A stretch of 64,000 bases of DNA from Jeotgalibacillus aurantiacus. Lineage in GTDB: Bacteria; Bacillota; Bacilli; Bacillales; Jeotgalibacillaceae. Under the pieces are notes generated by a model. That model was given only the letters and a program-made list of their open reading frames with translations. It was not told the DNA's origin and did not search any database. How positions within the stretch are numbered: position 1 is the first letter of the stretch; the number at the start of each line of letters is the position of its first letter. The position numbers and the translations under genes were made by a program. Positions 4,466 through 52,776 of this stretch are shown here, one piece after another. The stretch spans positions 930,001 to 994,000 of the forward strand of contig NZ_JACNMS010000001.1 in NCBI RefSeq assembly GCF_020595125.1. The letters run 5' to 3'.

Positions 4466-4590
4466 GGCGTGGATTTGACCACTCTTCGTGCGGATTTGAC
4501 TACTCTTTTGGTTATTTGACTACTTTTTATGGGGATTAGACCACTTTTTGAGGTTATTTAACCACTCTTCTCGGTTATTCAACCACTCTC
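4466..4590. repeat. 21-bp-period intergenic array, core TTTGACCACTCTT
   Basis: Six degenerate units. The GAC/AAC triplet of the core falls at 4477, 4498, 4518, 4539, 4560 and 4581, so spacings are 21, 20, 21, 21 and 21. Between cores the sequence is nearly unconstrained. A GC-rich palindrome (CCCGG...CCGGG, 4600-4615) follows. No credible gene is present between glpP and the peroxiredoxin gene; the reading frames that cross it are by-products of the 21-nt (seven-codon) period. Confidence 0.85.
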
Positions 4591-4680
4591 TGAAAAAATC
4601 CCGGCGCAGACCGGGGGCTCTTAGTGCTTTTAGGTACATAAGAGCACTTGGCTGGACGCTTCGCTTGTGCAGGGATGTGA

Positions 4681-4785
4681 GACTTGGTCACATTGGTGGG
4701 ATGTTTGGACACTTTGCGCGTGTACTTGGTCACTTTTGGCCCCAGCTTGGTCACTTTCGGCCCCAGCCTGGTCACTTCGCACCAA
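4681..4785. repeat. 21-bp-period intergenic array, core CTTGGTCACTTT
   Basis: Five units with the GG of the core at 4686, 4707, 4728, 4749 and 4770: four spacings of exactly 21 bp. The last three units also share the inter-core text GGCCCCAG. The array lies about 75 bp before the peroxiredoxin start and uses a different core word from the array 100 bp to its left. Confidence 0.88.
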
Positions 4786-4861
4786 AACACCTCCATCCGT
4801 TTACTCATCCAGTAAAAGGGTATTCACTCATTATGCTGACAAATTTAGGAGGCGTTACACG

Positions 4862-5356
4862 ATGAAAACTTTTAAGCTGGGCGAAAAAGCCCCGAATTTT
4901 GAACTGACATCGACAACTGGAGAAACATACTCTTTGGAAAACGAAAGAAACGGCTGGCAGCTGATCGTCTTTTTCAGAGGCTCATGGTGCCCGGTCTGTC
5001 AGAAAGATCTGAAGGAGTATTCCGACCATCTTTCGAAATTCACGGAAAACAACGTAAATGTCGTTGCCATTTCCACAGACACGAACGAAAACCTATCAAC
5101 ATTCAAACAGGAATATGAACTGAAATTCCCGGTGCTCTCTGACGAAAAACATGAAGTATTTGATGCGTACGGCGTGTTTTATCACGGAGAAGATGCACCC
5201 TATGAGGACCACGGCGAGCATGGCGAGCCGGGCTACTTCATTTTAGACGAAGAAGGACGCGTCCTGTTCCAGCACCGCCAAAGCGGACCATTCGGCCGCC
5301 CCGACGCCGAATCCCTGCGTAAAACAATCCGTTACATTCAAAAGAACCTGAAATAA
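4862..5356 (+). CDS. Peroxiredoxin-like AhpC/TSA family protein
   Basis: Thiol peroxidase-fold protein of 164 residues, probably cytoplasmic and reducing hydroperoxides. The start ATG follows TTAGGAGGCGTTACACG, an excellent site, and the sequence begins KLGEKAPNFELTS as AhpC/TSA proteins do. The redox motif is SWCPVC with Cys43 and Cys46; the CxxC spacing is thioredoxin-like and also seen in BCP-like members, whereas typical peroxiredoxins have a single peroxidatic Cys. A histidine/acid-rich insert (DHGEHGEPG) precedes the last beta strand. It stands alone between intergenic arrays and a terminator, reading against the replication direction. The physiological reductant cannot be named. Confidence 0.8.
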   Translation: MKTFKLGEKAPNFELTSTTGETYSLENERNGWQLIVFFRGSWCPVCQKDLKEYSDHLSKFTENNVNVVAISTDTNENLSTFKQEYELKFPVLSDEKHEVFDAYGVFYHGEDAPYEDHGEHGEPGYFILDEEGRVLFQHRQSGPFGRPDAESLRKTIRYIQKNLK

Positions 5357-5380
5357 TCGTTTGAATTAAACACAATAATG

Positions 5381-5420
5381 AAAAGGGATGTCCAGCCTCA
5401 TTAGCGGACATCCCTTTATT
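5381..5420 (+). terminator. Intrinsic terminator after the peroxiredoxin gene
   Basis: Perfect 12-bp stem AAAGGGATGTCC (5382-5393) with GGACATCCCTTT (5406-5417), 12-nt loop, ending in T-rich sequence; it lies 25 nt past the stop codon. Confidence 0.85.
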
Positions 5421-5501
5421 ATGACTAGAATTCTCTGTTCATAAAGCTTTTGACTTTAGTCTTATTCTTTTTAATATCGTTTCAGTTGAGATCAACCCAA
5501 A

Positions 5502-5614
5502 GGGCCGGACTCATCCGCAGACTCCTGTGGCGGAAAGGGTCAGGTGAAACCGACTGTGCGAAGCGCAGGCGGGTTCACCGCCCGGCCACGGAAAGCGAAG
5601 GATGAGTCCGGCCC
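5502..5614. repeat. Long GC-rich inverted-repeat element (family A), copy 1
   Basis: 113-bp imperfect hairpin. Terminal arms GGGCCGGACTCATCC (5502-5516) and GGATGAGTCCGGCCC (5600-5614) are perfectly complementary. The interior carries words shared with two other elements in this window (near 44.85-44.99 and 60.50-60.62 kb), such as GACTCCTG, TTCACCG and GGAAAGCGAAGG, here in the opposite orientation. No coding capacity. Similar elements are scattered in Bacillaceae genomes to my recollection, without a function I can name. Confidence 0.75.
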
Positions 5615-5828
5615 GGTTTTATACAACCATCCACATCCAAAACCCAAAACAACAAATTAATCCACATGTGGACAACAAATTAGTCTAATTTTTCGCTAAT
5701 TTCGCACCGGTTTTGTCGAGCGATCGCTCGGAAAACGTTGATATAAGCGCTTTCTTGTCCATGCTGGAAGGATTTTGATGAACAGAAAATGAATGGAGCC
5801 TCACAGTTATTCACTCATTATGAACAGG

Positions 5829-5871
5829 TTATCCCCAAAAGTTATACACATATCCACAATTTCTATCCACA
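5829..5871 (+). promoter_or_regulatory. DnaA-box-like cluster far from oriC
   Basis: Four nonamers in one orientation within 43 bp: TTATCCCCA (5829), TTATACACA (5842), ATATCCACA (5850) and CTATCCACA (5863), each one to two changes from TTATCCACA. More partial matches flank it: a TCCACATGTGGA palindrome near 5661-5672, TTCTCCACA (5891) and TTATCCACT (5953). The rest of the gap between the peroxiredoxin and the CxxH/CxxC genes holds only the family A element and AT-rich sequence. Confidence 0.6.
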
Positions 5872-5883
5872 TTTCGTATGGGA

Positions 5884-6048
5884 TCATGTGTTCTCCACAA
5901 TATATATGGCTCGTTCTTTGCAATATTCACAGATTGTGGACAAGTCGTCCTGGTTATCCACTGTCTTTAAATCCGGGTAGCTTTCCTGTTCATCCACAAA
6001 AACATCAAGGGCAAGCTCGACGTGTTCCTGGCAGCAATAGATCTTCAT
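5884..6048 (-). CDS. CxxH/CxxC small protein (BA_5709-like family)
   Basis: 54-residue protein with YCCQEH near the N-terminus and CEYC near residue 43, the paired Cys/His motifs of the small CxxH/CxxC family found beside htrA and rlmH in Bacillales; it could bind a metal ion, but the function is unknown. The ATG at 6048 is chosen because family members begin MKIYC and GGCGGTG lies upstream; an in-frame extension upstream crosses the htrA terminator and is not credible. The usual next gene, rlmH, is absent from the flanking sequence. Confidence 0.82.
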   Translation of the reverse strand: MKIYCCQEHVELALDVFVDEQESYPDLKTVDNQDDLSTICEYCKERAIYIVENT

Positions 6049-6120
6049 TTTTTCACCGCCTTCTTCAAATTTCCGATTTCTCATTTTAGCATAAAAAAAT
6101 GAAGCGCATGTTAAAAGCAC

Positions 6121-6159
6121 AAAAAAAGAGGCAGGAACGGTGGAGGCGTTCCTGCCTTG
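6121..6159 (-). terminator. Intrinsic terminator after htrA
   Basis: Stem AGGCAGGAACG (6129-6139) with CGTTCCTGCCT (6147-6157), 7-nt loop, followed on the minus strand by CTTTTTTT. It separates htrA from the small CxxH/CxxC gene, which therefore needs its own promoter or read-through. Confidence 0.88.
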
Positions 6160-6235
6160 AGACAAAATAGGCTTAAAAAATAGTAGAGTTGGACCTTTCA
6201 CTTTCTATGGTCTTGCATCTATATGAACTCACCTT

Positions 6236-7453
6236 TTACAGATCTGCATCATCTGTGAGGGTGAGAGTAACCTCTTGCATTTCACCATCGCGGTATACTT
6301 TAACCTGCATTTCATCGCCGACTTCTTTTTCAGTGTAAAGATGCTTACGAAGCTCGACGCTGTTGTTGATTTTCTTGCCATCCATTTCAACGATGACATC
6401 AAGATCTTCAAGTCCCGCTTCAGCAGCAGCTGAATTTGGTACAACACGCTGAATCACAACACCTGATTTTACTTCCTCAGGTAGATTCAGTTCACTTTGT
6501 CTTTGTGCAGCTGGTACATTTGCCAGGTCAAACAGTGTGATTCCCATTGTTGGACGAAGCACTTCACCTTGTGTTTCAAGGTCTTCGATGATTGGTGCTG
6601 CCATATCGATTGGAATGGCAAGACCGATACCTTCTACGGCTGACTGGGCAATTTTCATTGAGTTAATGCCGACCAGCTGGCCTTGAATATTGACGAGTGC
6701 GCCACCGCTGTTACCTGGGTTGATCGCAGCATCCGTCTGGATAACCTCTGCCTGCCAGTCAACGGCGCCGTCCTGATTAATGTCAACCGGAATTGTCCGT
6801 TCAACACCGGATACAACACCTGTTGTGACTGAGCCTGAGAACTGAAGACCTAATGGATTTCCGATTGCAATAACCGGTTCACCCGGCTTCAGTGCCTGTG
6901 AATCCCCGAATTCAGCAACGGTTTCGACGTTTTCATTGCTGATCTGGAGTACAGCAAGGTCTGTCCACTGGTCTCCCCCGAGCACCTGCGCTTCCTCTTT
7001 TGTGCCATCAGCGAGCGTGACTTCTACCTGATCGCTGCCTTCAATGACGTGATAGTTCGTCACGATGTACGCAGCGTCTCCTTCAGATTTATAAATGACA
7101 CCTGAACCGGTACCGGCTTCTGTTGCTTCACCGGATTGTCCGCCAAAGAGGCTTTGACCGGACTGCAGGTTGGTTACACCTACGACTGCTCCGCCAGCTT
7201 TTTCAACGGCTGCGGTCACGTCTGATGAGACATCATAGGAGACATTTTGCGTTTGTGCACTTTGTGTGCCGTCTCCTGAAGATGTATTATTGACAGCCGG
7301 TGAGCCGCCATTCCCCATCATTGGCATTAACAGTGTCACTAAAAGCGCTCCGATGATAAGTCCGGACAGACTGGATAAAAAATATCCTGCCTTACTTCCG
7401 CTTTTCTTACGGGATATGCTTTCTCGGGTTTCCTGATCATCATAGTATCCCAT
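6236..7453 (-). CDS. htrA: HtrA/DegP-type membrane-anchored serine protease with PDZ domain
   Basis: 405-residue surface quality-control protease. A basic cytoplasmic N-terminus and one membrane helix (about 24-46) are followed by an Asn/Ser/Gln linker, a trypsin-like domain with triad His135 (TNYHVIEG), Asp165 (WTDLAVL) and Ser249 (GNSGGALV), and one PDZ domain (about 305-395). The start MGYYDD is chosen because AAAGGA lies nine bases upstream; two earlier in-frame ATGs have no spacing for it. In B. subtilis the equivalent gene (yyxA) directly follows yycJ in the wal operon; here more than 4 kb of other genes and repeats separate them. A strong terminator follows. Confidence 0.93.
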   Translation of the reverse strand: MGYYDDQETRESISRKKSGSKAGYFLSSLSGLIIGALLVTLLMPMMGNGGSPAVNNTSSGDGTQSAQTQNVSYDVSSDVTAAVEKAGGAVVGVTNLQSGQSLFGGQSGEATEAGTGSGVIYKSEGDAAYIVTNYHVIEGSDQVEVTLADGTKEEAQVLGGDQWTDLAVLQISNENVETVAEFGDSQALKPGEPVIAIGNPLGLQFSGSVTTGVVSGVERTIPVDINQDGAVDWQAEVIQTDAAINPGNSGGALVNIQGQLVGINSMKIAQSAVEGIGLAIPIDMAAPIIEDLETQGEVLRPTMGITLFDLANVPAAQRQSELNLPEEVKSGVVIQRVVPNSAAAEAGLEDLDVIVEMDGKKINNSVELRKHLYTEKEVGDEMQVKVYRDGEMQEVTLTLTDDADL

Positions 7454-7594
7454 GTATGTCATTCCTTTCATCGTTATTTTGTTTTCTATGGTTCACAGTA
7501 TAAGAGGTGAAAATGAAAATTAGATGAAAAACGGCTAAATTTTTTAAGAAAATGCTCTATACTTTAAAAAAACTGTTATGTTGGGGGAATGATG

Positions 7595-8047
7595 ATGTTG
7601 AAACGAACGACAGATGTGGATGTAATCGCATCTTTAAATAAACCGGTACATGATTTGCATGTTAAGCTGCACCCGGATTTATTCGTGCCTTATTCATTTG
7701 AGGCGATGCGGGATGCATTTTTAAAAATTCTAGAGCATGGGGAGCATGAGATGTATGTGCTGGATGAGGATGCGGGTTTTGTGTGGTTTGAAATCCGCCG
7801 GAGAGAAGCCAACGCATTTAAAAAAGAGGTGTCCTATGTTTATGTGCACCAGATCAGTGTCTCACCTGCTTATCAGAAAAAAGGTTACGGCGCACTTTTA
7901 ATGGGAAAAGTAGAAGAGGCTGCAAGAGAGCGTGGTATTAATAGAGTTCAGCTCGATTACTGGAGCTCAAATACGGATGCAGCCGCCTTTTACCGCCATC
8001 AGGGCTTTGACGTGCTGCGTGAGGTGGTGGAAAAGCGGCTGGATTGA
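7595..8047 (+). CDS. GNAT-family N-acetyltransferase
   Basis: About 150 residues with the GNAT fold: acetyl-CoA site motif QKKGYGALLM (near residue 95, form Q/RxxGxG/A) preceded by the beta4 strand YVHQISVSPAYQ, and a C-terminal segment DYWSSNTDAAAFYRHQGF typical of small-molecule or amino-acid acetyltransferases. Three consecutive ATG codons at 7589, 7592 and 7595 follow TTGGGGG; the third gives the best spacing (7 nt) and is used here. It is 15 bp upstream of the glutaminase gene and probably co-transcribed with it, diverging from htrA. The acceptor substrate is unknown. Confidence 0.85.
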   Translation: MLKRTTDVDVIASLNKPVHDLHVKLHPDLFVPYSFEAMRDAFLKILEHGEHEMYVLDEDAGFVWFEIRRREANAFKKEVSYVYVHQISVSPAYQKKGYGALLMGKVEEAARERGINRVQLDYWSSNTDAAAFYRHQGFDVLREVVEKRLD

Positions 8048-8062
8048 TCGGGAGGCACACAT

Positions 8063-9025
8063 ATGAGAAGCGAGGAAGTGTATGAGAGATTGACGCAGTG
8101 GGTTGAGGATAACCGCTCCCATACAATGCTTGGGGAAACCGCCAAATATATTCCGGCGCTTGCGAATCAGGACCCCAATCAGCTTGGGATCTGTATCATG
8201 GATTATGACGGGGATACCTATACTGCCGGAGACAGCGATGTGAAATTCACGCTTCAAAGTGTGTCTAAAATCATCAGTTTTGTGGCGCTCTGTCATTTTA
8301 GAGGGCTTGATTTTGTGCTCGATAAAGTGGATGTGGAGCCGACAGGTGAATCGTTCAATTCCATTATCCCTTTTGAAATCCACCGGCCGGGAAAGCCGTT
8401 TAATCCGCTGATTAATGCTGGTGCGATCACCGTTGCCTCGATGCTTCCGGGTGATACGGTCGGGGAAAAATATGAGCGTTTTCTCTTATTTGTCGAAGGG
8501 ATGATTGGTCATCAGCTTGAGCTCGATCAGGCGGTTTATGAATCTGAATGGCAGACCGCCCACCGGAACCGCGCGCTTGCTTATTATTTGAAAGAATCGA
8601 AGCTTTTGGATCTGGACGTGGAGGAAGCACTCGATATTTATATCAGGCTTTGTGCGATCTGTATTACCCTTGAGGATCTTGCGAAAATCGGACTGGTGAT
8701 TGCACACGACGGCTACGATCCCGTTGAGAAACGGCAGATTTTCAGCAGTGATGTGGCGCGGATTGCAAAGGTATTGATGGTGACATGCGGGATGTATAAT
8801 TCATCCGGAAAATTTGCTGCGCACGTCGGGATCCCTGCTAAAAGTGGTGTGTCAGGCGGGATTTTAGCGTCCGTTCCGCCAAAATGGCATTCACCGGAAA
8901 AAGCGTTTCGCAAAGGCTGCGGCATTGCTGTGTTCAGCCCCGCGATTGATAAAAACGGAAACAGCGCAGCTGGTACGATGCTATTGCGTCAGATTTCCGA
9001 GGCATGGGATTTTAGTATTTTCTGA
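8063..9025 (+). CDS. glsA: Glutaminase A
   Basis: Hydrolyses L-glutamine to glutamate and ammonia in the cytoplasm. 320 residues, close to the usual bacterial glutaminase length (about 305-330). The serine beta-lactamase-like active site is visible as SVSK (Ser66, Lys69), with NAGAI near residue 117, the conserved CGMYNSSG segment near 246 and the KSGVSGG motif near 262-268. The start follows GGGAGGCACACAT. It lies 15 bp after the acetyltransferase gene, and no recognisable terminator follows in the repeat-containing gap. A glutaminase in this position is not part of the usual wal neighbourhood and looks like an insertion between yycJ and htrA. Confidence 0.93.
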   Translation: MRSEEVYERLTQWVEDNRSHTMLGETAKYIPALANQDPNQLGICIMDYDGDTYTAGDSDVKFTLQSVSKIISFVALCHFRGLDFVLDKVDVEPTGESFNSIIPFEIHRPGKPFNPLINAGAITVASMLPGDTVGEKYERFLLFVEGMIGHQLELDQAVYESEWQTAHRNRALAYYLKESKLLDLDVEEALDIYIRLCAICITLEDLAKIGLVIAHDGYDPVEKRQIFSSDVARIAKVLMVTCGMYNSSGKFAAHVGIPAKSGVSGGILASVPPKWHSPEKAFRKGCGIAVFSPAIDKNGNSAAGTMLLRQISEAWDFSIF

Positions 9026-9076
9026 GGAGGGCTGCTGCGGTGGCCTTTTTTTGGTGGGGTGCGGTGAGTGTGCGGC

Positions 9077-9265
9077 ATTCCATCACTGCGGTGAATGATT
9101 CAGGCTTTTTGAGATTTTAATTCAGGCTGTTGAAAATGGAATTCCTTCTTTCTGGATTGTCATTCCTTCACTCGCCCGATTGCGTCTGCTTTTCCCTTCG
9201 TTTCAAGGTTTGAATCCCTCCACTGCTGATCAGAATTCCTTCTTTTGAAAAAATCATTCCTTCAA
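9077..9265. repeat. 21-bp-period intergenic array, core ATTCCTTC
   Basis: Core words begin at 9077, 9098, 9120, 9141, 9162, then after two weak units at about 9214, 9235 and 9256; spacings are 21 or 22. The words are ATTCCATC, ATTCAGGC, ATTCAGGC, ATTCCTTC, ATTCCTTC and so on. It fills the gap between glsA and a convergent gene; no coding sequence is seen. Confidence 0.75.
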
Positions 9266-9281
9266 ACCACCGGCCCCATTT

Positions 9282-9311
9282 AAAAAACGCCCGGCGCTTC
9301 AGCCGGACGTT
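9282..9311 (-). terminator. Intrinsic terminator after the redoxin gene
   Basis: Minus strand stem AACGTCCGGC with GCCGGGCGTT followed by TTTT; arms at 9302-9311 and 9286-9295. It begins within 3 bp of the redoxin stop codon. Confidence 0.8.
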
Positions 9312-9313
9312 CA

Positions 9314-9910
9314 TCAGATTTCACCCATCATTTCAATCATCATATCCTGATCCATCGGCCCCATCAGCTTGCGCTGGATGATGCCGTCCTCGTCGATTAA
9401 ATACGTGGTCGGGATCGAATAAGCCTGAAATTCTTCGCCGAGCAGGCCTGTATCGTCAAGTAGAATAGGGAACGTGAGCTCATAATCCTCTACAAAACTG
9501 CGCACCTTATCCATCCCGTTATCCTTACTCGTTAGGTTAACCGCTAAAACTTCAACGTTCTGCTCTTTGGCCATCCCTTCATAATAATCCTGCATGTGCG
9601 GCATTTCAGCCATACATGGCGGACACCAGGTTGCCCAGAAATTGAGAATGATCTTTTTGCCACGAAGATCCTTCAGCGCAATGATGTCACCATCCAGTGT
9701 TGATGCCTGAACATCCGGAACGGGCTGACCTTCCTTCAGTGCACCTGTTGACTCAACAGGCTGGGCCGTTTCATTGTCAGCGGGCATCACAGCATACTGC
9801 TCCATCAATGCCTGCCGCTCCTCTCGTTCTTTCTGATCATTTATTACATTTATAATAAGTAACGCCACAAGTACGCCTACCCCCGCAAGCGCAATGATAC
9901 GTGGAATCAT
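9314..9910 (-). CDS. Membrane-anchored TlpA/ResA-like thiol-disulfide oxidoreductase
   Basis: 198 residues: one N-terminal membrane helix (residues 3-22), a charged linker, then a thioredoxin-like domain (about 60-195) with active site WCPPC (Cys96, Cys99), the usual motif of extracytoplasmic reductases such as ResA and StoA. The segment IPTTYLIDEDG supplies the cis-Pro loop. It probably reduces disulfides on the outer face of the membrane, for example during cytochrome c maturation, but no haem-lyase genes are nearby. It overlaps the upstream membrane-protein gene by 4 bp (ATGA), implying a two-gene unit in which the partner may supply electrons or an anchor. Confidence 0.85.
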   Translation of the reverse strand: MIPRIIALAGVGVLVALLIINVINDQKEREERQALMEQYAVMPADNETAQPVESTGALKEGQPVPDVQASTLDGDIIALKDLRGKKIILNFWATWCPPCMAEMPHMQDYYEGMAKEQNVEVLAVNLTSKDNGMDKVRSFVEDYELTFPILLDDTGLLGEEFQAYSIPTTYLIDEDGIIQRKLMGPMDQDMMIEMMGEI

Positions 9911-11350: not shown

Positions 11351-11470
11351 CTTGGTCACATTTGCCGCCAGCCTGGACACTTAAAGATGGTGTTTGGTCA
11401 CATTCTACGTCAGCTTGGTCACTTACGCCTTTAACTTGACCACTTTTGTGCTTTATTTGGTCACTTTCAT
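11351..11470. repeat. 21-bp-period intergenic array, core CTTGGTCACTTT
   Basis: Six units with core GG/GA at 11354, 11375, 11396, 11417, 11438 and 11459: five spacings of exactly 21. Same core word as the arrays at 4.7 and 18.0 kb, but inter-core sequences differ. A GC-rich hairpin CCCGGC...GCCGGG (about 11476-11493) follows immediately, as after the arrays at 4.5 and 9.2 kb. Confidence 0.88.
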
Positions 11471-11526: not shown

Positions 11527-11665
11527 CCGAACGATGCGAAAAGTCCCAACCTTGCGAACTTCGACTAAAATCTGATGAAAGTCTCCGGGAATTCTGTGAA
11601 CCTCACCCCATATCTTGCGAAACACACGCAACATTCCGCAAAACTCGCTCAAAATCCTGCGAACC
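11527..11665. repeat. 21-bp-period intergenic array, core CTTGCGAAC
   Basis: Core GCGAA-like words at 11554, 11575, 11596, 11617, 11638 and 11659 (five spacings of 21), with two irregular words before them (11527, 11536). A second core type directly beside the CTTGGTCACTTT array in the same gap. No gene is seen between yycJ and the AhpD-like gene. Confidence 0.85.
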
Positions 11666-17332: not shown

Positions 17333-17385
17333 TCTACTATAGTAAATGTATCACGTTAAGGTGGATATTTCACTTATTTACAAAA

Positions 17386-17975
17386 GAAAAGCGGAGGCGG
17401 GCGTTTAGGGACGTACAAACTGGACTGGCCTCGACGAAGATAAAGGAAACACGGCGAACGAAGTGAACCGATGTTGACTTATCGAACGAGAGGACGGGAA
17501 GTTTGCTAGTCCCTGCCCGCCGGAGCTGGACATCGAGAAAAGCGGAGGCGGGCGTTTAGGGACGTACAAACTGGACTGGCCTCGACGAAGATAAAGGAAA
17601 CACGGTGAACGGATGTGAACCGATGTTGACTTATCGAACGAGAGGACGGGAAGTTTGCTAGTCCCTGCCCGCGGGAGCTGGACATCGAGAAAAGCGGAGG
17701 TTCGCGTTTAGCGGCGTATGCGGTGGACTGAAGCGATTAAGATAAAGGAAACACGGAGAGCGTCAGCGAGCCGATGTTGACTTATCGAAATGAGCTGAGG
17801 GAAGCGCACTAGCCGCTGCGAACCGGAGCTGGATCGAGAAAGGTGGAGGCTTTGCTCAGCCCCGACAAGCATAAGACGAAAATGAAAAGAGGGTTGCCCT
17901 TTACCCTCGTTCATTTTTGACTTATGACCTCGAGGGGCTAGGCGCCGGAGCTGGATCAAGAAAAGCGGAGGCGGG
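17386..17975. repeat. Four tandem copies of family B inverted-repeat element
   Basis: Units begin at about 17386, 17534, 17688 and 17836, each opening GAAAGCGGAGG-like and closing CCGGAGCTGGA; a further stub (AAAAGCGGAGGCGGG) ends the block. Copies 1-3 share AGATAAAGGAAACACGG and CCGATGTTGACTTATCGAA. The arms differ but stay paired: copies 1-2 GCGGGC...AGGGAC with GTCCCTGCCCGC; copy 3 GGTTCGC...AGCGGC with GCCGCTGCGAACC; copy 4 AGCCCC with GGGGCT plus AAAATGAA with TTCATTTT. No coding sequence. Confidence 0.82.
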
Positions 17976-17980
17976 TTGGT

Positions 17981-18085
17981 GTTTGGACACTTTTGCTTTC
18001 AGTTTGGTCACTTACTGGCTGAGCTTGGTCACTTTTGAGCTTAATTTGGACACTTTCACCTCAAACTTGGTCACTTTCTTGAACA
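17981..18085. repeat. 21-bp-period intergenic array, core TTTGGTCACTT
   Basis: Five units with the core GG at 17985, 18006, 18027, 18048 and 18069: four spacings of exactly 21 bp. It abuts the family B block. Confidence 0.88.
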
Positions 18086-18224: not shown

Positions 18225-18345
18225 CCCCTTCCCTTTCCGTGGCCGCGTGGTGAGCCCGGCAGGCTATCTAACAACTTTTTCGGTAATTTTACAATTCTTC
18301 CGCTTTATTCAAAAACTCTTACCATGTATTTGACAACTCTCCAGA
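18225..18345. repeat. Family A fragment followed by a short 21-bp-period array, core ACAACTCTT
   Basis: 18228-18262 resembles one half of a family A element (CCTTTCCGTGGCCGCGTGGTGAGCC). It is followed by four units ACAACTTTT, ACAATTCTT, AAAACTCTT and ACAACTCTC at 18271, 18291, 18312 and 18333 (spacings 20, 21, 21). Confidence 0.65.
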
Positions 18346-25239: not shown

Positions 25240-25865
25240 CTGAAATGACGAATGTGTCATCTAAACTCACAAATTCCCGCGGGAACTGACGAAAGTGACG
25301 CCTATCCTCACGAAGTTCGCGGCTAACCTGACGAATTTGGGTGCCAAGCTTACGAACTCTTCCGGAGCCATATTTAAAAGACGGTTACCAGCGGCGGCAT
25401 GGGGCTTATTTCACTGAACTCACAAACTTTCTCACAAGCTGACAAACTCCAGTCCGGAACTCACGAAACCGCCGCCTATCCTCACGAACTCAGTGGCTAA
25501 CCTGACGAATTTGGGTGCTAAGCTTACGAACTCTTCCGGAACCATATTTAAAAGACGGTTACCAGCGGCGGGCATGGGGCTTATTTCACTGAACTCACAA
25601 ACTTTCCGGCAAGCTGGCGAACTCCGCCGCGGAACTCACAAACCCGCCGCCTATCCTCACGAACTCAGTGGCTAACCTGACGAATTTAAACGCTGAGCTC
25701 ACGAACTCTTCCCGACACACCTTTCAAAGACGGTTACCAGCGGCGGCCATGGGGCTTATTTCACTGAACTCACAAACTTTCTCGCAAGCTGACGAACTCC
25801 GGTCCGGAACTCACAAACCCGTCGCCTATCCTCACGAATTCACTCCACAACCTCACAAACTCCCC
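25240..25865. repeat. Large 21-bp-period array with 174-175 bp higher-order repeat, core CTCACGAACTC
   Basis: ACGAA/ACAAA words occur at 25248, 25269, 25289, 25310, 25331 and 25352, then 25422, 25442, 25463, 25484, 25505 and 25526, and so on. Superimposed is a longer unit: the block GACGGTTACCAGCGGCGG starts near 25380, 25554 and 25729, and CCTGACGAATT at 25329, 25503 and 25678, giving periods of 174 and 175 bp. Frames open through it are artefacts of the 21-nt period; no credible gene lies between purA and dnaC. Confidence 0.85.
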
Positions 25866-36318: not shown

Positions 36319-36486
36319 TTTATTCACTCCATATCTCAAACATTTTCATGTGACGTGTCAACTTCAAACCTCACATAATTATAAAGATTCCGCGCGCTAA
36401 ATACAAGAGTACCTGTTTTAATGGTTTGTATGTGGGGGAGGTTGGTGAGTGTGAGTTGGAGGTCTGGGTAAAAAAGCGTGGGATGG

Positions 36487-36635
36487 ATCGACAGAAATTT
36501 TAATACTATGAACAAATATTACAGTGCGATCAACAATAATAAAGGCTCTATCGACACAATTTTTCGTGCTATCGACAATTTCAACCCCCGGCAGACAGTC
36601 TATCAACAGAAACTGCTCACCTTGTGACAGAAATA
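36487..36635. repeat. 21-bp-period intergenic array, core TATCGACAATTT
   Basis: Words ATCGACA, ATGAACA, ATCAACA, ATCGACA and ATCGACA start at 36487, 36508, 36529, 36550 and 36571 (all spacings 21); after an irregular unit, ATCAACA at 36602 and TGTGACA at 36623 resume the 21-bp step. It fills the gap between ychF and the DUF951 gene; no gene is seen there. Confidence 0.82.
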
Positions 36636-46745: not shown

Positions 46746-47363
46746 TTATTTTTTTGCCGTAATTACGAGATAACGGCGGGGTTCATTTCCTTCTGAATGT
46801 GTTTCGATATCACGTCTGCCTGATAGCGCACTGTGAATAATTTTCCGCTCAAAGGATGGCATCGGTTCAAGCTTGACCGGTTTTTTCGTCCGGACTGCCT
46901 GATGAGCCATTCTTTCAGCAAGCTGACTGAGCGTCACCCTTCTGCGCTCACGGTAATCCTCCGCATCTAAAACGATCGTGATAAATTGCGCTGAGTAGCG
47001 GTTGGCCACCAGCTGGGCAAGAGACTGCAGCGCATTAAGCGTTTGTCCTCTTTTGCCGATCAGCAGCGCAACTTTTTCACTTTCAAGCTTAAATGTGACC
47101 GTTTTTCCTTCACGCTGAATGGATGTTGTTACGTCCACACCCATATGTGCAGTCACGTCCTTCAGATAACGGTCCACTTCCTCAACCGCATCTTTTTTAC
47201 GGATGACCTGCACTTTTGCCGGGCGGGAGCCTATCCCTAAAAACCCTTTTTTTCCTTCGTCAAGCACATGAATGTCTGCCTGTTCCCTGGAAATGGCCAG
47301 TTTTACAAGTGCTTCAGCTACAGCCTCTTCCACGGTGGCACCTGTCAGTGTGATTTCATCCAC
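46746..47363 (-). CDS. jag: RNA-binding protein Jag/KhpB (SpoIIIJ-associated)
   Basis: 205 residues: Jag_N domain (1-50, TLTGATVEEAVAEAL and KGFLGIGSRPAKV), KH domain with LIGKRGQTLNALQSLAQL (about 106-123) and an R3H domain ending IIHSALSGRRDIETHSEGNEPRRYLVI. Partners KhpA in binding mRNA of cell-wall genes. GTG start eight bases after AGGGGG. Last gene of rpmH-rnpA-yidC-jag, 17 bp after yidC. Confidence 0.96.
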   Translation of the reverse strand: MDEITLTGATVEEAVAEALVKLAISREQADIHVLDEGKKGFLGIGSRPAKVQVIRKKDAVEEVDRYLKDVTAHMGVDVTTSIQREGKTVTFKLESEKVALLIGKRGQTLNALQSLAQLVANRYSAQFITIVLDAEDYRERRRVTLSQLAERMAHQAVRTKKPVKLEPMPSFERKIIHSALSGRRDIETHSEGNEPRRYLVITAKK

Positions 47364-47380
47364 AATCCGGTCCCCCTGTC

Positions 47381-48145
47381 TTATTGAACGGAACTCTCTG
47401 TCTTCTTGCTGCCAACTCCATTAATCAGGAGTGTCTGAACAATCATGAAGATGTTACCGACTACCCAGTAAAGAGATAGCGCCGATGGGAAGACAATCGC
47501 AAACACTGCGATCATTACCGGCATCAGGTATAGCATAATCTGCATTTGCGGATTCATACCTGCCGGATTTCCAGCCATCATAATTTTCTGCTGTAAATAT
47601 GTCGTTAAACCTGTAACAAGCGGCAGAATAAAGAACGGATCCGGCTCGCCAAGGTCAAACCATAAAAAGCTGTGGTTCGCAATTTCAGTTGTACGGACGA
47701 TTGCATGGTAGAATGCAATCAGAATCGGCATTTGTACAAGAAGCGGGAAACACCCTGCAAGCGGGTTAACTCCGTGCTTCTGGAACATCGCCATTGTTTC
47801 CTGCTGAAGCTTCTGTTGCGTTTGAGCATCTTTGGATGAATACTTTTCACGTAACTTCAACATTTCAGGCTGAATTTCCTGCATACGTTTCGTGTTTTTT
47901 GTCTGCTTAATCATTAATGGAAGTAAAACGAAACGGATTAAAAGTGTCACAAGGACAATCCCAAGTCCGTAGTTCTCATTAAAAAACTCAGCAAACGTGG
48001 TAATAAGCCAAGAAAGCGGATAAACGAAATAGCTATTCCAAATCCCTTCACTGTCGGATGTGATTGGCTGGTCAATTTCAGTACAGCCGGCTAAGAAAAC
48101 CGCCACAACCGCGATCATAAAGAAGGGAATCATTTTCTTCTTCAC
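47381..48145 (-). CDS. yidC: Membrane protein insertase YidC/OxaA (SpoIIIJ type)
   Basis: 254 residues, lipoprotein with lipobox FLAGC (Cys about 21) and five membrane helices; the insertase core shows [43 protein letters not shown] and [19 protein letters not shown]. Inserts membrane proteins with or without Sec. The start is a GTG at 48145, nine bases after GGGAGG; an in-frame extension upstream has no signal-peptide character. The highly similar sporulation paralogue cannot be distinguished except by this location next to jag. Confidence 0.95.
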
Positions 48146-48234
48146 TAATCTGTTCCTCCCTGTTTTTATCCTATAAATTATAATCTGCCAAACGTAATTG
48201 TAACACGTTTTCATTTCAATAGAACACTATGGCC

Positions 48235-48591
48235 CTATTTCTTCGTTTTTTCGACACGTAATACACGTGATTTTTTCATCACATGCATTAAACTGCTTTT
48301 CGTTTCATGAAAATTCAGGTCAGCAGCAGGCTTACGGGCAATCACGATGTAATCATGATGCGGATCCAGCTCCTCAGACAATTCATAAAAAGCCTGACGG
48401 ATATAGCGCTTCACCTGATTACGTACGACCGCATTTCCAACCTTTTTACTGACAGACAACCCGAGACGAAAAACAGCCTGTTCCTTTTTTTGCAGCCGGT
48501 AAAGAACAAACTGGCGGTTCGCCATGGATGTTCCTTTCCTGAAAACCTGCTGAAACTCCGGATTTTTTTTAATACGCTGCTCTTTTTTCAT
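48235..48591 (-). CDS. rnpA: Ribonuclease P protein component
   Basis: 118 residues. Starts [20 protein letters not shown] and has the RNR-type motif [27 protein letters not shown] (given here in overlapping pieces near residues 48-72). Assists the catalytic RNA in tRNA 5' processing. The ATG at 48591 follows AAGGGTGTTCTG; an upstream in-frame ATG overlaps that site. A stem-loop lies between rpmH and rnpA. Confidence 0.96.
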
Positions 48592-48632
48592 CAGAACACC
48601 CTTCAATTTCGTCAGTCATTTCATTTTATAAG

Positions 48633-48666
48633 TGAAAAAAGACCACTGAGTGGAATCAGTGGTCTT
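48633..48666 (-). terminator. Attenuating terminator between rpmH and rnpA
   Basis: AAGACCACTGA (48639-48649) pairs with TCAGTGGTCTT (48656-48666) around 6 nt; on the minus strand it is followed by TTTTTTCAC. It begins at the rpmH stop codon and would make rpmH transcript far more abundant than rnpA transcript. Confidence 0.85.
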
Positions 48667-48799
48667 AAGCAGACAATACTTTACGTCCACGCTGACGGCG
48701 GCGGGCAAGAACTTTACGTCCATTTTTCGTGCTCATACGCGCGCGGAAACCGTGTACTTTACTTCTCTTACGCTTATTTGGCTGGAATGTACGTTTCAT
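48665..48799 (-). CDS. rpmH: 50S ribosomal protein L34
   Basis: 44 residues, nearly invariant sequence: [42 protein letters not shown]. Start preceded by GGAGGTGTCTTAC. First gene of the leftward rpmH-rnpA-yidC-jag group that borders oriC. Found by direct translation because it is too short for usual cut-offs. Confidence 0.98.
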
Positions 48800-48959
48800 G
48801 TAAGACACCTCCTAAAAGATCATTTAATTATATGATCATACTTCCAGAAATACCTGGTTCATTCTATCGATGACAATCATCAACTATCTATGCTCATTTC
48901 ATGCAACCACTATATCATAGCAAAAACCCACCAAGCATTCAATAGCCAATTTAAAAATC

Positions 48960-49105
48960 GAAAAAACTGGCGTATGCAGGGAAAAAAGACAAGAAGGCGA
49001 AGGGCGAGTAAACTCGCCTCTCACCTTCTTGTCTTTTTTCCCTGCTTTTCAGCTCCGCTGAAAAGCGGTTGAACCAGAGGTTCAACCGAATACGCCAGTT
49101 TTTTC
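48960..49105. repeat. 146-bp perfect DNA cloverleaf between rpmH and dnaA
   Basis: Closing stem: GAAAAAACTGGCGTAT (48960-48975) with ATACGCCAGTTTTTTC (49090-49105), 16 bp perfect. Arm 1: 22 perfect bp (48976-48997 with 49024-49045) plus an inner 6-bp GGCGAG/CTCGCC hairpin. Arm 2: TTTTCAGC (49046-49053) with GCTGAAAA (49057-49064), loop TCC. Arm 3: CGGTTGAACC (49066-49075) with GGTTCAACCG (49079-49088), loop AGA. Only G65 and A89 (49065, 49089) are unpaired at the junction. No sensible reading frame. Confidence 0.9.
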
Positions 49106-49191
49106 TTTCACACACTTCCTTATATAAACAATAAACGAAACAATTCTCTTCCACATCGATTCCTCACACGCTATTTCAATGCGCCACCCCC

Positions 49192-49247
49192 GCCGAGGTT
49201 GTGAACATCTGATCCGCGCAAGCAGATCAGATGTTCACAGCCTCGGC
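49192..49247. repeat. 56-bp hairpin near oriC
   Basis: GCCGAGGTTGTGAACATCTGATC (written as 49192-49214) pairs with 49225-49247 at 22 of 23 positions around a 10-nt loop CGCGCAAGCA. It lies 86 bp from the cloverleaf and has no terminator-like tail adjacent to a gene end. Confidence 0.85.
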
Positions 49248-49400
49248 AAAACCACTCCGCTTCCTCCAACAAACCCGCTCACCAAAAACAATCTTCAACC
49301 ACTCAGCAAAAACATCTCACGAATCATTCACTCAACCAAAAAACCAATGCATAACCCACACCCCAAAAATAATCCTTCTCCAAATCTCTCAACCTGTGAA
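49248..49400. other. G-poor, strongly strand-asymmetric tract next to oriC
   Basis: About 150 bp on the plus strand are made mostly of A and C with very few G (for example CAACCAAAAAACCAATGC, ACCCACACCCCAAAAAT). No gene is credible. It directly precedes the DnaA-box array. Confidence 0.7.
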
Positions 49401-49433
49401 TAACTCATTTCCTCAAAAATCCTCACAAAAAAA

Positions 49434-49667
49434 TTATCCACAACGCTTATCGACACGTTTTTCACAGACAAACAGTCTGTGGACAAATAAAATCCACTTA
49501 TCTAAAGGGTTGTGGATAAACAATACGAACCATTGCACCAACAAGCATTATCTGATATTATAGTTGTGTTTTCACTCTGAATAACTTATTCTATCGAAAA
49601 ACATTATCCACAGATGTGGATAGTCTGTGGATAAACTATTTCACATGCATGGAAAAAGTTGTCCACA
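49434..49667. promoter_or_regulatory. oriC: oriC part 1: DnaA-box array upstream of dnaA
   Basis: Perfect boxes TTATCCACA at 49434 and 49604 and perfect inverted boxes TGTGGATAA at 49511 and 49626; one-mismatch boxes TGTGGACAA (49478), TGTGGATAG (49615) and TTGTCCACA (49659). This corresponds to the incA/incB clusters of B. subtilis, which also regulate dnaA transcription. Confidence 0.93.
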
Positions 49668-49797
49668 ACCATTGAATGGTGTCGATAACCCTCGAATCCA
49701 CCATTTTCGGCTATTCAGAAAAATGTATATATATAAATCTTATGAAACGGGAATGTTTTTCTCGAAAAATATTATAGAAAAGGAGGGGGCATTCAGT

Positions 49798-51144
49798 TTG
49801 GAAAATATCACGGATTTATGGAACCGGGCACTGCAGGATATGGAGAAAAAGATCAGTAAACCGAGCTTTGAAACCTGGCTTAAGTCAACAAAAGCTTTTT
49901 CTCTTAAACGGAACGTTTTAACCGTCACAGCGCCTAATGAATTCGCCCGGGACTGGCTTGAAGGGAACTACACGCAATTAATTGTCGGTGTCATAAAGGA
50001 AATAACCGGGGAAGAGCTGACGATCAAGTTCATTATTCCTCAAAATCAGGACGAAGATGATTTCGCTTTGGCTGCACCCCCAAGAAAGCCCGTCGTTGAC
50101 GATGACCAGCAGGAATGGTCTAAGAGCATGCTGAATCCGAAGTACACCTTTGACACCTTTGTCATCGGATCCGGTAATCGCTTCGCGCACGCTGCTTCAC
50201 TTGCTGTAGCGGAAGCACCGGCAAAAGCTTATAACCCGTTATTTATTTACGGGGGAGTAGGACTTGGCAAAACGCACTTAATGCATGCGATCGGCCATTA
50301 TGTGCTTGAACATAACGCATCTGCTAAGGTTGTTTACTTATCTTCTGAGAAATTCACCAATGAATTTATTAATTCAATCCGTGATAACAAAGCGGTTGAT
50401 TTCCGCAATAAGTACCGGAACGTAGATGTGCTGTTAATTGATGATATTCAATTTTTAGCCGGGAAAGAACAGACGCAAGAGGAATTTTTCCATACTTTTA
50501 ATACTTTACATGAAGAAAGTAAACAGATCGTAATCTCAAGCGACCGGCCGCCTAAAGAGATTCCGACACTGGAGGACCGTCTGCGTTCACGTTTTGAGTG
50601 GGGGCTGATCACGGACATCACACCGCCTGATCTTGAAACAAGAATCGCCATTCTCCGCAAAAAGGCGAAGGCAGAGGGACTTGATATTCCAAATGAAGCG
50701 ATGCTGTATATCGCCAACCAGATTGACTCCAATATCCGTGAGCTTGAAGGGGCGCTGATTCGCGTTGTGGCTTATTCTTCATTAGTCAGCAAGGACATTA
50801 ATGCAGACCTGGCAGCTGAAGCACTGAAGGATATTATGCCAAGCTCCAAGCCGAAAGTGATTACGATCATGGACATTCAAAAAACCGTGGGAGAGCATTT
50901 CAGCGTAAAGCTTGAGGATTTCAAAGCGAAAAAACGGACAAAAACCGTCGCATTTCCAAGGCAGATCGCGATGTATCTGTCGCGTGAGATGACAGACTTC
51001 TCTTTACCGAAGATCGGGGAAGAATTCGGAGGGCGTGATCATACAACGGTTATACATGCCCACGAAAAAATTTCAAAACTGCTCGCAACAGACGAATCTT
51101 TAAAGCAGGAATTGAAGGATATTAAAGCCGAACTGCAAAAGTAG
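49798..51144 (+). CDS. dnaA: Chromosomal replication initiator DnaA
   Basis: 448 residues. Domain I (1-85) starts [17 protein letters not shown]; domain II linker about 86-112; AAA+ domain III with Walker [10 protein letters not shown] (152-160), Walker [10 protein letters not shown] (about 214-222) and RLRSRFEWG; domain IV with the DnaA signature [11 protein letters not shown] (about 400-410) that reads DnaA boxes. The start is a TTG (49798) eight bases after AGGAGGGGG, giving the expected N-terminus; upstream in-frame ATGs run through the DnaA boxes and are rejected. Confidence 0.97.
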
Positions 51145-51156
51145 GGAAATAACCGC

Positions 51157-51303
51157 TGTGTATAAGTGACAAAATCCGTGCACGTTCGACCACATTCTAT
51201 TCACATGCGGATAACACGTCATGTCAGTCATTAACAGACATATCCACATATCCACAGCCCCTACTATTATTACTAAGTTTATTTAAAAATATTTATTATA
51301 TAA
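51157..51303. promoter_or_regulatory. oriC: oriC part 2: DnaA boxes, DnaA-trios and unwinding element between dnaA and dnaN
   Basis: Boxes TGTGTATAA (51157) and TGCGGATAA (51206), then two tandem ATATCCACA (51240, 51248). Directly after them come a short GC stretch (GCCCC) and CTACTATTATTACTAAG (51261-51277), which reads as consecutive DnaA-trios (CTA CTA TTA TTA CTA), then about 30 bp almost only A/T (51278-51303). This is the order described for the B. subtilis basal unwinding system. Confidence 0.85.
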
Positions 51304-51341
51304 CTCGCAGCAAACTTGCGAAGAGTTGGAGGATATCTTAC

Positions 51342-52478
51342 ATGAAATTTCAGATTCAGCGTGATCGTCTTGTTGATGGCGTTAATGATGTCATCAAAGC
51401 GGTCTCATCCAGAACAGCGATTCCGATTTTGAGCGGAATTAAAATTACAGCTCACGAGGAAGGAATTACACTGACTGGAAGTGATTCAGATATTTCGATT
51501 GAATCGTTTATTCCAAAAGAAGAAGATGGTAAGGAAATCGTTCATGTTGAAGAAACAGGGGGCATTGTCCTTCAGGCCAGATTTTTTGAAAGCATCGTGA
51601 AAAAGCTGCCGCTTGATACAGTGGAAATTGAAGTCCACTCACACCTGCAAACCGTGATCCGCTCAGGAAAATCGGAATTCAACTTAAACGGCCAGGATGT
51701 AAGAGAATATCCGCATCTTCCGGAAATTGAGGAAGACAGCGTACTGAAAATCCCGACAAACCTTTTAAAAACGATTATTCGTCAGACGGTGTTCGCAGTG
51801 TCCACCTCAGAAACACGCCCTATCTTGACAGGTGTAAACTGGACGGTGGAAGACGGTACTTTAAACTGTGTTGCAACAGATTCCCATCGTCTGGCCATGC
51901 GTAAAGCACCGGTCAGCGGAGGAAACGGCGAGCCATACAAAGCCGTTATTCCGGGTAAAAGTCTAAATGAACTGAACAAAATTCTTGAAGATACAGCAGA
52001 TGAAACAGAAATCGTCATGACAGAGAACCAGGTGCTGTTCCGCTCCAAGCACGTACTGTTCTTTTCAAGACTGCTTGAAGGAAATTATCCTGATACGTCA
52101 AGACTCGTTCCGTCTGAAAGCAAAACGTCGATGACTGTTGGCGGAAAAGAATTTTTACAGGCGATCGACCGTGCTTCCTTGTTAGCACGTGAAGAACGCA
52201 ACAATGTCGTGAAGCTGTTGATCAGTGAAGACGGTAATGTTCAGATTTCATCTAACACTCCTGAAATCGGGAAGGTTGTTGAGGAAATCCAGAGTGATGA
52301 AACAACTGGTGAAGCGCTGACGATTTCATTCAGTGCGAAATACATGATGGATGCGTTAAAGGTGCTTGAAGGTACAGAAACGAATATCCAGTTTACCGGT
52401 GCGATGAGACCATTCGTTCTTCGCCCGACAGCAGATGACAGCATTCTTCAGCTGATCACACCTGTTCGTACGTACTAA
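51342..52478 (+). CDS. dnaN: DNA polymerase III beta subunit (sliding clamp)
   Basis: 378 residues, standard size, three similar clamp domains. Begins MKFQIQRDRLVDGVNDVIKA; further landmarks ATDSHRLAMRK (about 184-194) and the C-terminal MRPFVLRPTADDSILQLITPVRTY, where the hydrophobic partner-binding pocket is completed. Start preceded by GGAGGATATCTTAC. Followed by a terminator, so yaaA-recF-remB-gyrB probably start from their own promoter. Confidence 0.98.
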   Translation: MKFQIQRDRLVDGVNDVIKAVSSRTAIPILSGIKITAHEEGITLTGSDSDISIESFIPKEEDGKEIVHVEETGGIVLQARFFESIVKKLPLDTVEIEVHSHLQTVIRSGKSEFNLNGQDVREYPHLPEIEEDSVLKIPTNLLKTIIRQTVFAVSTSETRPILTGVNWTVEDGTLNCVATDSHRLAMRKAPVSGGNGEPYKAVIPGKSLNELNKILEDTADETEIVMTENQVLFRSKHVLFFSRLLEGNYPDTSRLVPSESKTSMTVGGKEFLQAIDRASLLAREERNNVVKLLISEDGNVQISSNTPEIGKVVEEIQSDETTGEALTISFSAKYMMDALKVLEGTETNIQFTGAMRPFVLRPTADDSILQLITPVRTY

Positions 52479-52496
52479 TGTCAGTGATTCATTGAA

Positions 52497-52545
52497 AGAC
52501 TGAAACACAGCCGCTCAATTTGGCGGGATGTGTTTCAGTTTTTTG
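52497..52545 (+). terminator. Intrinsic terminator after dnaN
   Basis: ACTGAAACACA at the left and TGTGTTTCAGT at the right close a long GC-containing loop, followed by TTTTTTG. Confidence 0.8.
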
Positions 52546-52590
52546 TTTTAGTGAAGGCCGGATGGGGAAGAGGATTTTTCATTTTGGGGA

Positions 52591-52776
52591 ACGTTACAAT
52601 TCCTGAGTGGAACGATACAAATCTATCGCCGTAGTGATACAATTAACAGACCAAACAGAACAATTCACCTGCTATCTGCAGCAAACGATACAATAAAATG
52701 CTGAAACAGTACGAAAAAATGTTGAAACGATACAATTATTTTCTGAATCGAGTCAATCACTCACCCAAACAGTACA
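52591..52776. repeat. 21-bp-period intergenic array, core AACGATACAATT
   Basis: Core words ACGTTACA (52591), ACGATACA (52612), GTGATACA (52634), ACAGAACA (52655), then ACGATACA (52685), ACAGTACG (52706), ACGATACA (52727), ATCGAGTC (52747/8) and ACAGTACA (52769): spacings 21, 22, 21, one break, then 21, 21, 21, 21. It is the only such array to the right of oriC. No gene between dnaN and yaaA. Confidence 0.8.

What the first reader, a model, noticed from the sequence alone, without database searches (positions are those of the whole stretch)
4466..52776. A family of intergenic arrays with an almost exact 21-bp period and locus-specific core words
At least nine gaps (4466-4590, 4681-4785, 9077-9265, 11351-11470, 11527-11665, 17981-18085, 25240-25865, 36487-36635, 52591-52776, and a short one at 18271-18345) hold 4-20 degenerate units. 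Only an 8-12 bp core is conserved; the distance between cores is 21 bp in nearly every step (for example 11354, 11375, 11396, 11417, 11438, 11459). Each locus has its own core: TTGACCACTCTT, CTTGGTCACTTT, CTTGCGAAC, ATTCCTTC, CTCACGAACTC, TATCGACAATT, AACGATACAATT. Twenty-one bp is two helical turns, so all cores lie on one face of the DNA, and it is seven codons, so frames stay open and yield false heptad-repeat proteins (such as VTKLGPK repeats). I know no described repeat class with a fixed period but a core that differs by locus. Possible roles: phased protein binding, DNA curvature or nucleoid architecture; or a replication/repair process that copies a word within a locus.
Basis: partly seen in the sequence, partly recalled or inferred. 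Interest (0 to 1): 0.85.

Follow-up and report, generated by a model that had tools for sequence, protein, structure and literature searches.

The report
Origin-side arrays of 21-base DNA units
This bacterium carries many short DNA arrays, usually five or six units exactly two turns of the double helix apart, in the gaps between genes on the replication-origin side of its chromosome; they look like rows of docking sites for unknown DNA-binding proteins, and their key word differs between families and between related species.

Summary
In 1.26 Mb sampled from this genome, 85 intergenic clusters have a 21-bp period; lags 14-20 and 22-30 together give 1. After refinement, 447 of 476 unit steps are 21 bp and 29 are 20 bp. 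Of 99 arrays 63 have six units, 27 five. "One core per locus" is wrong: about nine families of words recur, with 3 to 32 arrays each. A congener keeps the period but uses other words. Cores change about half as fast as spacers between sister genomes. Arrays favour convergent gene ends. They are almost absent around the terminus: 2 in 422 kb near dif, 97 in 840 kb elsewhere; a second species agrees. I found no RNA-fold, IS21 or target-duplication signature, and coding is unlikely. Family B arrays are copies of one dispersed six-unit element. Best reading: directional, helically phased binding arrays for unidentified DNA-binding proteins acting on the origin side of the chromosome. The protein and the function are inferred, not shown.

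The parts
4466..4590 (+). family G array, 6 units, core TTTGACCACTCTT
   Evidence: lag-21 identity 0.65; classified; kept in sister genome G004
4681..4785 (+). family A array, 5 units, core TTGGWCACTTT
   Evidence: lag-21 identity 0.67; 3 units in G004
9077..9265 (+). weak family C-like array, core ATTCCTTC
   Evidence: lag-21 identity 0.45 over the whole stretch, 0.50 at best; the same gap carries CGAAC-core arrays in G009, G007 and G006
11351..11470 (+). family A array, 6 units
   Evidence: six units also in G004 with cores kept and spacers diverged
11527..11665 (+). family D array, 6 units, core TGCGAACC
17981..18085 (+). family A array, 5 units (one 21-bp unit more in G004)
18271..18345 (+). 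short array, about 4 units, core resembling families G/H
   Evidence: lag-21 identity 0.52, lag 42 0.55; too short for the 84-bp scan
25244..25359 (+). family B array 1 (purA-dnaB gap), core CTCACGAACT, first step 20 bp
25418..25533 (+). family B array 2
   Evidence: G004 has two lag-21 clusters in this gap against four here, so one or more of arrays 2-4 is missing there; which one cannot be told
25592..25707 (+). family B array 3
25768..25862 (+). family B array 4, 5 units
36485..36580 (+). family E array, 5 units, core TATCGACAATT
   Evidence: G007 has an array with another core (ATGTGACC) in this gap, G009, G006 and G003 none
52591..52778 (+). family F array in the gap after dnaN, core AACGATACAATT
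   Evidence: present in G004, absent in G009, G007, G006 and G003, whose gaps are shorter

Best explanation
Each array is a directional row of five or six sites of roughly 12-15 bp, spaced 21 bp so that all lie on one face of the helix, for a sequence-specific DNA-binding protein. The families (A, B, C, D and so on) would be recognised by different members of one group of proteins, or by one protein whose preference drifts, so words change between species while the spacing, set by how neighbouring protein units pack along DNA, does not. The bound rows sit in non-coding gaps, above all between converging genes on the origin-proximal part, and most likely help to organise or segregate that part of the chromosome, as RacA/ram, Noc and ParB sites do in Bacillus. 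New copies arise by spread of whole six-unit elements (seen for family B) and by gain or loss of 21-bp units. SHOWN: period, unit number, families, one direction of units within an array, slower change of cores, placement, scarcity near dif in one genome and far from the origin in a second, turnover between species, dispersal of family B. INFERRED: that a protein binds, which protein, and the organising role.
For: Exclusive period; 447 of 476 steps are 21 bp; 90 of 99 arrays have five or six units. Pooled unit profiles have a conserved core and a low-information stretch of about four to seven positions (some core columns were fixed by the search expression, the stretch was not). Core mismatch 87/1002 against spacer 108/611 and flank 266/1820 between sister genomes (16 of 99 arrays could be paired). 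Gaps of 150-2500 bp outside C2 below 820 kb that hold arrays: convergent 28/56, tandem 32/161, divergent 10/83. C2 below 820 kb 3/156, rest 70/300, Fisher 4e-11. Within 450 kb of dif: 2 arrays where 33 are expected (neighbouring arrays are not independent). Relative G007: 16 arrays in 7 usable samples up to about 700 kb from the origin, 0 in 11 samples at about 800 kb or more (test). A different dispersed repeat (151 bp) is not so confined: 3 of 17 loci in the zone with 2 of 99 arrays. Noc-site matches are likewise scarce there: 1 of 21 on C2.
Against: No binding protein was identified and no binding data exist. Array positions are at best weakly conserved with G007 (both 6, G000 only 12, G007 only 9, neither 60 of 87 gaps), unlike an essential fixed site. 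One congener, G003, shows no clear excess in 50.5 kb near its origin (1 weak cluster at lag 21, 1 at six other lags), and G037 and G015 of other families have none in 15 kb each. In some arrays cores changed as much as spacers (family G 5/72 against 2/45). One extra G007 sample at 600 kb from the origin is empty. The polarity bias against the replication fork (51:18) shrinks to about 35:18 when I subtract nine defining loci and an estimated seven clustered B loci by hand (p 0.03), and by hand count it is absent in the main G007 family (7 of 13).
Confidence: 0.5

Rival explanations
1. They are selfish or neutral dispersed short repeats (REP/MITE-like) that spread as whole elements and by slippage of a 21-bp unit; convergent gaps merely tolerate them, and the period reflects the mechanism of spread.
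For: Family B arrays share a head and unit-index-specific bases across loci (same-index identity 0.387 against 0.356 +- 0.0015 shuffled in 24 arrays, locally multiplied copies not removed). Families are lineage-specific with high turnover. Units are gained or lost in 21-bp steps. Local multiplication of B arrays is seen.
Against: No excess of flanking repeats (direct >=10 bp: 1 seen, 0.8 expected; inverted >=10 bp: 3 seen, 1.3 expected; 76 loci). Cores evolve slower than spacers. Families with different words keep the same period and five or six units. The near-absence around the terminus is not shared by another dispersed repeat.
Confidence: 0.32
2. They are ends or end-derived relics of transposons with several direct transposase sites per end (IS21, Tn7, Mu type).
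For: IS21 ends carry two direct repeats each (PMC10122671, passages); arrays are directional direct repeats.
Against: No IS21 transposase over the family cut-off in this genome; Tn7- and Mu-type transposases were not searched for. No inverted partner array was found: 31 of 31 same-family pairs in one gap have the same polarity. No excess of flanking repeats. Five or six units rather than two.
Confidence: 0.07
3. They are real or decayed coding sequences for heptad-repeat proteins.
For: Frames stay open more often than in shuffles (84 + 69 of 594 against 86.9 expected); in family B variable core positions lie three apart (2, 5, 8, two of them being wildcards of my search expression).
Against: Any 21-bp period keeps frames open. 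27 of 32 B arrays have a 20-bp first step, which shifts the frame between units 1 and 2. Family A variable positions are not three apart and its spacers carry little information.
Confidence: 0.04
4. They act as RNA, as repeated protein sites or folded structures in 3' ends of transcripts.
For: They lie near gene ends; in tandem gaps family A runs opposite to the genes in 7 of 8 cases.
Against: No excess structure in five window stretches on both strands (z -1.33 to +1.41). No Rfam match in the window besides three tRNAs. Orientation is mixed for most other families. The scarcity near the terminus has no RNA-level reason that I can see.
Confidence: 0.06

Closest known systems
RacA-ram sites of Bacillus subtilis (centromere-like elements)
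   Same: Recurrent sites dense near the origin in a Bacillales chromosome (ram density: PMC6593407, passages).
   Different: ram is one palindromic motif (recalled); here there are rows of five or six direct units at 21 bp with several different words. RacA was not searched for.
Noc binding sites (NBS) and other nucleoid-occlusion sites
   Same: Scattered sites scarce around the terminus; NBS-like matches show this in the present genome.
   Different: NBS are single palindromes, ATTTCCCGGGAAAT (recalled); arrays are longer, directional and of many words.
REP/BIME repeats of enterobacteria
   Same: Dispersed intergenic repeats, usually more than 100 copies; BIMEs have regularly spaced units (PMC2817692, start of abstract in the listing).
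   Different: REPs are palindromes, in BIMEs in alternating orientation; these are direct, structure-free units with fixed pitch and exchangeable words.
Plasmid iterons
   Same: Several direct repeats of about two helical turns bound by an initiator (recalled).
   Different: Not at one replication origin but dispersed through a chromosome, with several words per genome.
IS21/Tn7/Mu transposon ends
   Same: Direct repeats of a transposase site (PMC10122671, passages).
   Different: No IS21 transposase over cut-off, no inverted partner and no excess of flanking repeats found here.

Membership tests
REP/BIME | palindromic unit able to form a hairpin | tested here: not met
   fold z-scores -1.33 to +1.41 for five window stretches on both strands
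REP/BIME | alternating orientation of units | tested here: not met
   units within an array are direct repeats; same-family arrays in one gap share polarity in 31 of 31 pairs
REP/BIME | dispersed intergenic placement, mostly away from promoters | tested here: met
   convergent 28/56, tandem 32/161, divergent 10/83 of gaps outside C2 below 820 kb
RacA-ram / centromere-like sites | high density on the origin side | tested here: met
RacA-ram / centromere-like sites | bound by RacA or another segregation protein | not testable with these tools
   no binding data; the racA gene was not searched for
IS21-type transposon ends | IstA transposase in the genome | tested here: not met
   NF033546: one sub-threshold match at 20.8 bits, cut-off 160
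IS21-type transposon ends | target-site duplications or terminal inverted repeats | tested here: inconclusive
   76 loci, no clear excess of repeats >=10 bp; the 4-5 bp duplications usual for such elements would not be seen
Plasmid iterons | direct repeats at about two helical turns | tested here: met
Plasmid iterons | adjacent Rep initiator gene and a replication origin | tested here: inconclusive
   arrays at 99 places in 36% of the genome; no Rep-type family among ten typed window proteins, the other neighbours were not typed
Coding heptad repeats | one uninterrupted reading frame | tested here: not met
   20-bp step after unit 1 in 27 of 32 B arrays; not excluded for each single array of other families

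The most novel reading that the evidence does not exclude
A chromosome-addressing code: the origin-proximal part of the chromosome in several Bacillales lineages is marked by rows of five or six binding sites at a strict two-turn pitch, read by a fast-diverging set of DNA-binding proteins. The pitch is the conserved part and the word is exchangeable, so words and readers co-evolve like PRDM9 hotspots or centromere repeats in eukaryotes.
Probability: 0.3. Interest if true: 0.93.

Novelty: categorically new. Interest (0 to 1): 0.8.

Why it matters
If the arrays are bound, they would reveal an unrecognised chromosome-organising system in Bacillales with a usable rule: fixed pitch, five or six units, origin side, exchangeable word. 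It would make testable how a bacterial chromosome domain is marked and how such marks change between close relatives. Even if they are selfish, a repeat class that keeps period and unit number but not sequence, and is scarce around the terminus, would need a new mechanism of spread.

Tried and rejected
Tried without result: Rfam on the window (only three tRNAs); RNA folding; IS21 transposase; flanking direct and inverted repeats (one inverted match of 14 bp, at C1:873484, where 0.2 of 12 bp or more is expected); viral contigs with the family A word (7 single hits, about what chance gives by my hand estimate; two of them, L270 and L271, show the same stretch). Simple terminators: 15 of 76 on the left and 28 of 76 on the right of arrays against 99 of 456 random gap starts, no clear enrichment. 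Positional conservation with G007 was re-tested at five thresholds: Fisher p 0.02 to 0.38, so weak. Literature: eight searches, five of them aimed at repeats and three at RacA, IS21 and Noc, listed no description of such arrays; the library is open-access only and I judged most papers by title and start of abstract. Papers opened: PMC6593407 passages, PMC10122671 passages, PMC11417379 outline, abstract and two passages, PMC2267715 one passage. Considered and rejected: one word per locus; a strong replication-polarity rule (weak after correction). Non-Bacillales hits (24 of 73 stretches): several are 7-bp runs, but some do give lag-21 clusters and one, L124 of a Bacteroidales MAG, is a ten-unit 21-bp array with near-constant spacers; I did not follow it. 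Caveats: genes were called by my own codon-usage script; family prototypes were chosen by eye, mostly from the window, so classes and polarity signs carry that choice; arrays under about five units are undercounted by the 105-bp detection span.
Full report
WHAT THE WINDOW IS. The window is C1:930001-994000 of a 3.51 Mb, 19-contig genome. Ten of its proteins were typed by Pfam, among them a WalK-like kinase, adenylosuccinate synthetase (purA), MnmE, a RecF/RecN/SMC-type ATPase, gyrase B and gyrase A; dnaA (from 49.7 kb), dnaN (51342-52478), yaaA and dnaB are named from gene order and recall. The genus is most likely Jeotgalibacillus: its closest relative here, G004, has a 91,068-bp contig equal in length to a contig of Jeotgalibacillus sp. 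R-1-5s-1.

CHECK OF THE OBSERVATION. All ten listed gaps have lag 21 as best or second-best lag. In 1.26 Mb of the genome (36%), 85 intergenic clusters pass identity 0.54 over 84 bp at lag 21, and 1 cluster in all at lags 14-20 and 22-30; predicted coding DNA has 7 at lag 21. At a looser threshold and after refinement there are 99 arrays, with 447 steps of 21 bp and 29 of 20 bp. Unit numbers are 4 (1 array), 5 (27), 6 (63), 7 (6) and 8 (2). Arrays below five units are undercounted by design; longer ones are not, so the upper limit near six is real. The 99 include weak rows, among them the A-rich stretch at window 37938.

FAMILIES, NOT LOCUS-SPECIFIC WORDS. The 99 arrays fall into B 32, D 14, A 13, C 10, G 10, I 6, F 4, H 4, E 3 and 3 unclassified (prototypes set by eye). 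Profiles of A, B, D and G each show a conserved core and a low-information stretch of about four to seven positions (units were picked with a search expression, so some core columns are fixed by the picking). Units within an array point one way; where two families share a gap their polarity agrees in 5 of 6 pairs. Family B has a structural mark: in 27 of 32 arrays there is a 20-bp step, always the first. B arrays share a head, about TAGG.C..TTTACACTAAA, and unit-specific bases (31 arrays shown; same-index identity 0.387 against 0.356 +- 0.0015 shuffled in 24 arrays, locally multiplied copies included), so they are copies of one six-unit element. The same test is weak in D (0.399 against 0.389 +- 0.003) and A (0.329 against 0.320 +- 0.003) and absent in G. 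Family D arrays have a similar head, TAGGTC....CACAAT. TAGG occurs within 45 bp before the array in 29 of 90 arrays, after it in 6, on the other strand in 4; clustered B arrays make this count less independent than it looks.

WHERE THEY SIT. Of gaps of 150-2500 bp outside C2 below 820 kb, 28 of 56 convergent, 32 of 161 tandem and 10 of 83 divergent gaps hold arrays. In this sample they come no closer than 47 bp to a called start codon but can abut stop codons. dif was found exactly once, at C2:342113, near where GC skew flips. Within 450 kb of dif there are 2 arrays in 422 kb sampled, elsewhere 97 in 840 kb; 33 would be expected, Poisson 2.5e-12, though neighbouring arrays are not independent. 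By gaps it is 3 of 156 on C2 below 820 kb against 70 of 300, Fisher 4e-11. On C1 the two samples about 820-940 kb from the origin also have none, while C2 from 809 to 918 kb has five. An independent test in G007 uses a 3.516 Mb contig that starts next to dnaN and whose skew flips near its middle, with 20-kb samples every 200 kb. The seven usable samples up to about 700 kb from the origin give 0, 5, 3, 1, 4, 2 and 1 arrays, the ten beyond 800 kb none. One sample (L195) was left out because of masked bases; three clusters at six other lags occur in the samples used. Of later samples, one at 800 kb and one at 600 kb are also empty. Mann-Whitney on 7 against 11 samples, without the one at 600 kb, gives p 0.0002. 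Another dispersed repeat of this genome, 151 bp long, has 3 of 17 loci in the dif zone, so repeats in general are not shut out. Noc-site matches with up to one mismatch are scarce on C2, 1 of 21.

EVOLUTION. Between G000 and G004 (median 99% protein identity over 48 of 49 window genes), 16 of the 99 arrays could be paired, since only parts of G004 were held: mismatches are 87/1002 in cores, 108/611 in spacers, 266/1820 in 60-bp flanks. Whole units are gained or lost in 21-bp steps, for example at C1:366187 and 947982. Some arrays depart from the rule: family G at 934469 has 5/72 core and 2/45 spacer changes. Against G007 (about 85% identity) 87 orthologous gaps give arrays in both 6, G000 only 12, G007 only 9, neither 60; conservation of place is at best weak. 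The exact A pattern is absent from G007; within the genus only G000 and G004 of 12 genomes have it, and 3 of 397 genomes searched in the order. G007's main family reads TTTTCTA[AC]GAAC, with other words beside it, at the same 21-bp pitch (24 clusters against 3 at six neighbouring lags). In the same gap different species can carry different words: in the glutaminase gap ATTCCTTC in G000 but CGAAC-type in G009, G007 and G006. Thus the pitch is kept while the word changes. Near the origin, lag 21 against six other lags gives 12 and 2 clusters in G004, 9 and 1 in G009, 7 and 2 in G006, but 1 and 1 in G003, so one congener shows no clear excess.

BREADTH. The named scan found the A pattern in 73 stretches, 49 of them in Jeotgalibacillus, Sporosarcina, Gracilibacillus, Tenuibacillus and Ureibacillus (counted by hand). 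Those loci show lag-21 clusters and few at eight other lags, for example 35 against 1 in all for Sporosarcina sp. E16_8 and 28 against 1 at each other lag for Jeotgalibacillus; they were chosen for containing the pattern, so only further arrays are independent evidence. In 15-kb samples near the origin, G038 of another family has two arrays with a shared new word (around GATAATA), G037 and G015 have none.

MECHANISM. The shared rule is geometry: 21 bp is two turns, so all cores face one side, and units are directional. Direct, structure-free repeats with slower-changing cores are what a row of protein sites looks like (inference). The coding reading is opposed by the 20-bp step and the spacer profile; the RNA reading has no fold signal; transposon ends lack an IS21 transposase, inverted partners and flanking repeats. 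The main rival is a selfish dispersed repeat, which explains family B copies and turnover well, but not the common pitch and size of families with different words, the slower cores, or the scarcity near the terminus. I therefore favour binding arrays with an origin-side organising role at 0.5, the selfish reading at 0.32.

LIMITS. The reader protein is unknown. Polarity against the replication fork (51:18) weakens to about 35:18 after hand removal of nine defining and an estimated seven clustered loci (p 0.03), and a hand count of G007's main family gives 7 of 13, so I do not build on it. Sampling covers 36% of the genome. Novelty is judged from open-access searches only.

Noticed in passing
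window 17385-17789: A 151-bp tandem repeat (2.7 copies), dispersed at 17 loci of the sampled genome; 6 of 13 family A arrays lie within 200 bp of a copy.
   Followed up: partly
G000 C1:880635-892755 (L048-L049): Thirteen family B arrays within about 12 kb, four of them about 163 bp apart: a local burst of the element.
   Followed up: partly
window 4590-4680 and L103 1160-1260: A segment beside family A arrays (GCGAAGCGTCCAG ... TTAGGTACMTAA ...) recurs in the sister genome and in similar form beside other A arrays: A arrays may belong to a composite repeat.
   Followed up: no
L071, L080, L100, L137 (Sporosarcina sp. E16_8): Long 21-bp arrays, partly with a higher-order period of 103 bp, at contig ends; they may have broken the assembly.
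   Followed up: no
window 15632 and 18152: Exact parS inside the WalK-like gene and an exact Noc-site match just after a family A array.
   Followed up: no
G000 C1:740217 gap: In G000 one arm of the terminator hairpin is repeated on the far side of the array, while G007 has a single hairpin and no array: a possible trace of how arrays enter. No general excess of flanking repeats was found.
   Followed up: partly
L124 about 1350-1640: A Bacteroidales MAG carries a ten-unit 21-bp array with the TTGGACACTTT word and near-constant spacers.
   Followed up: no
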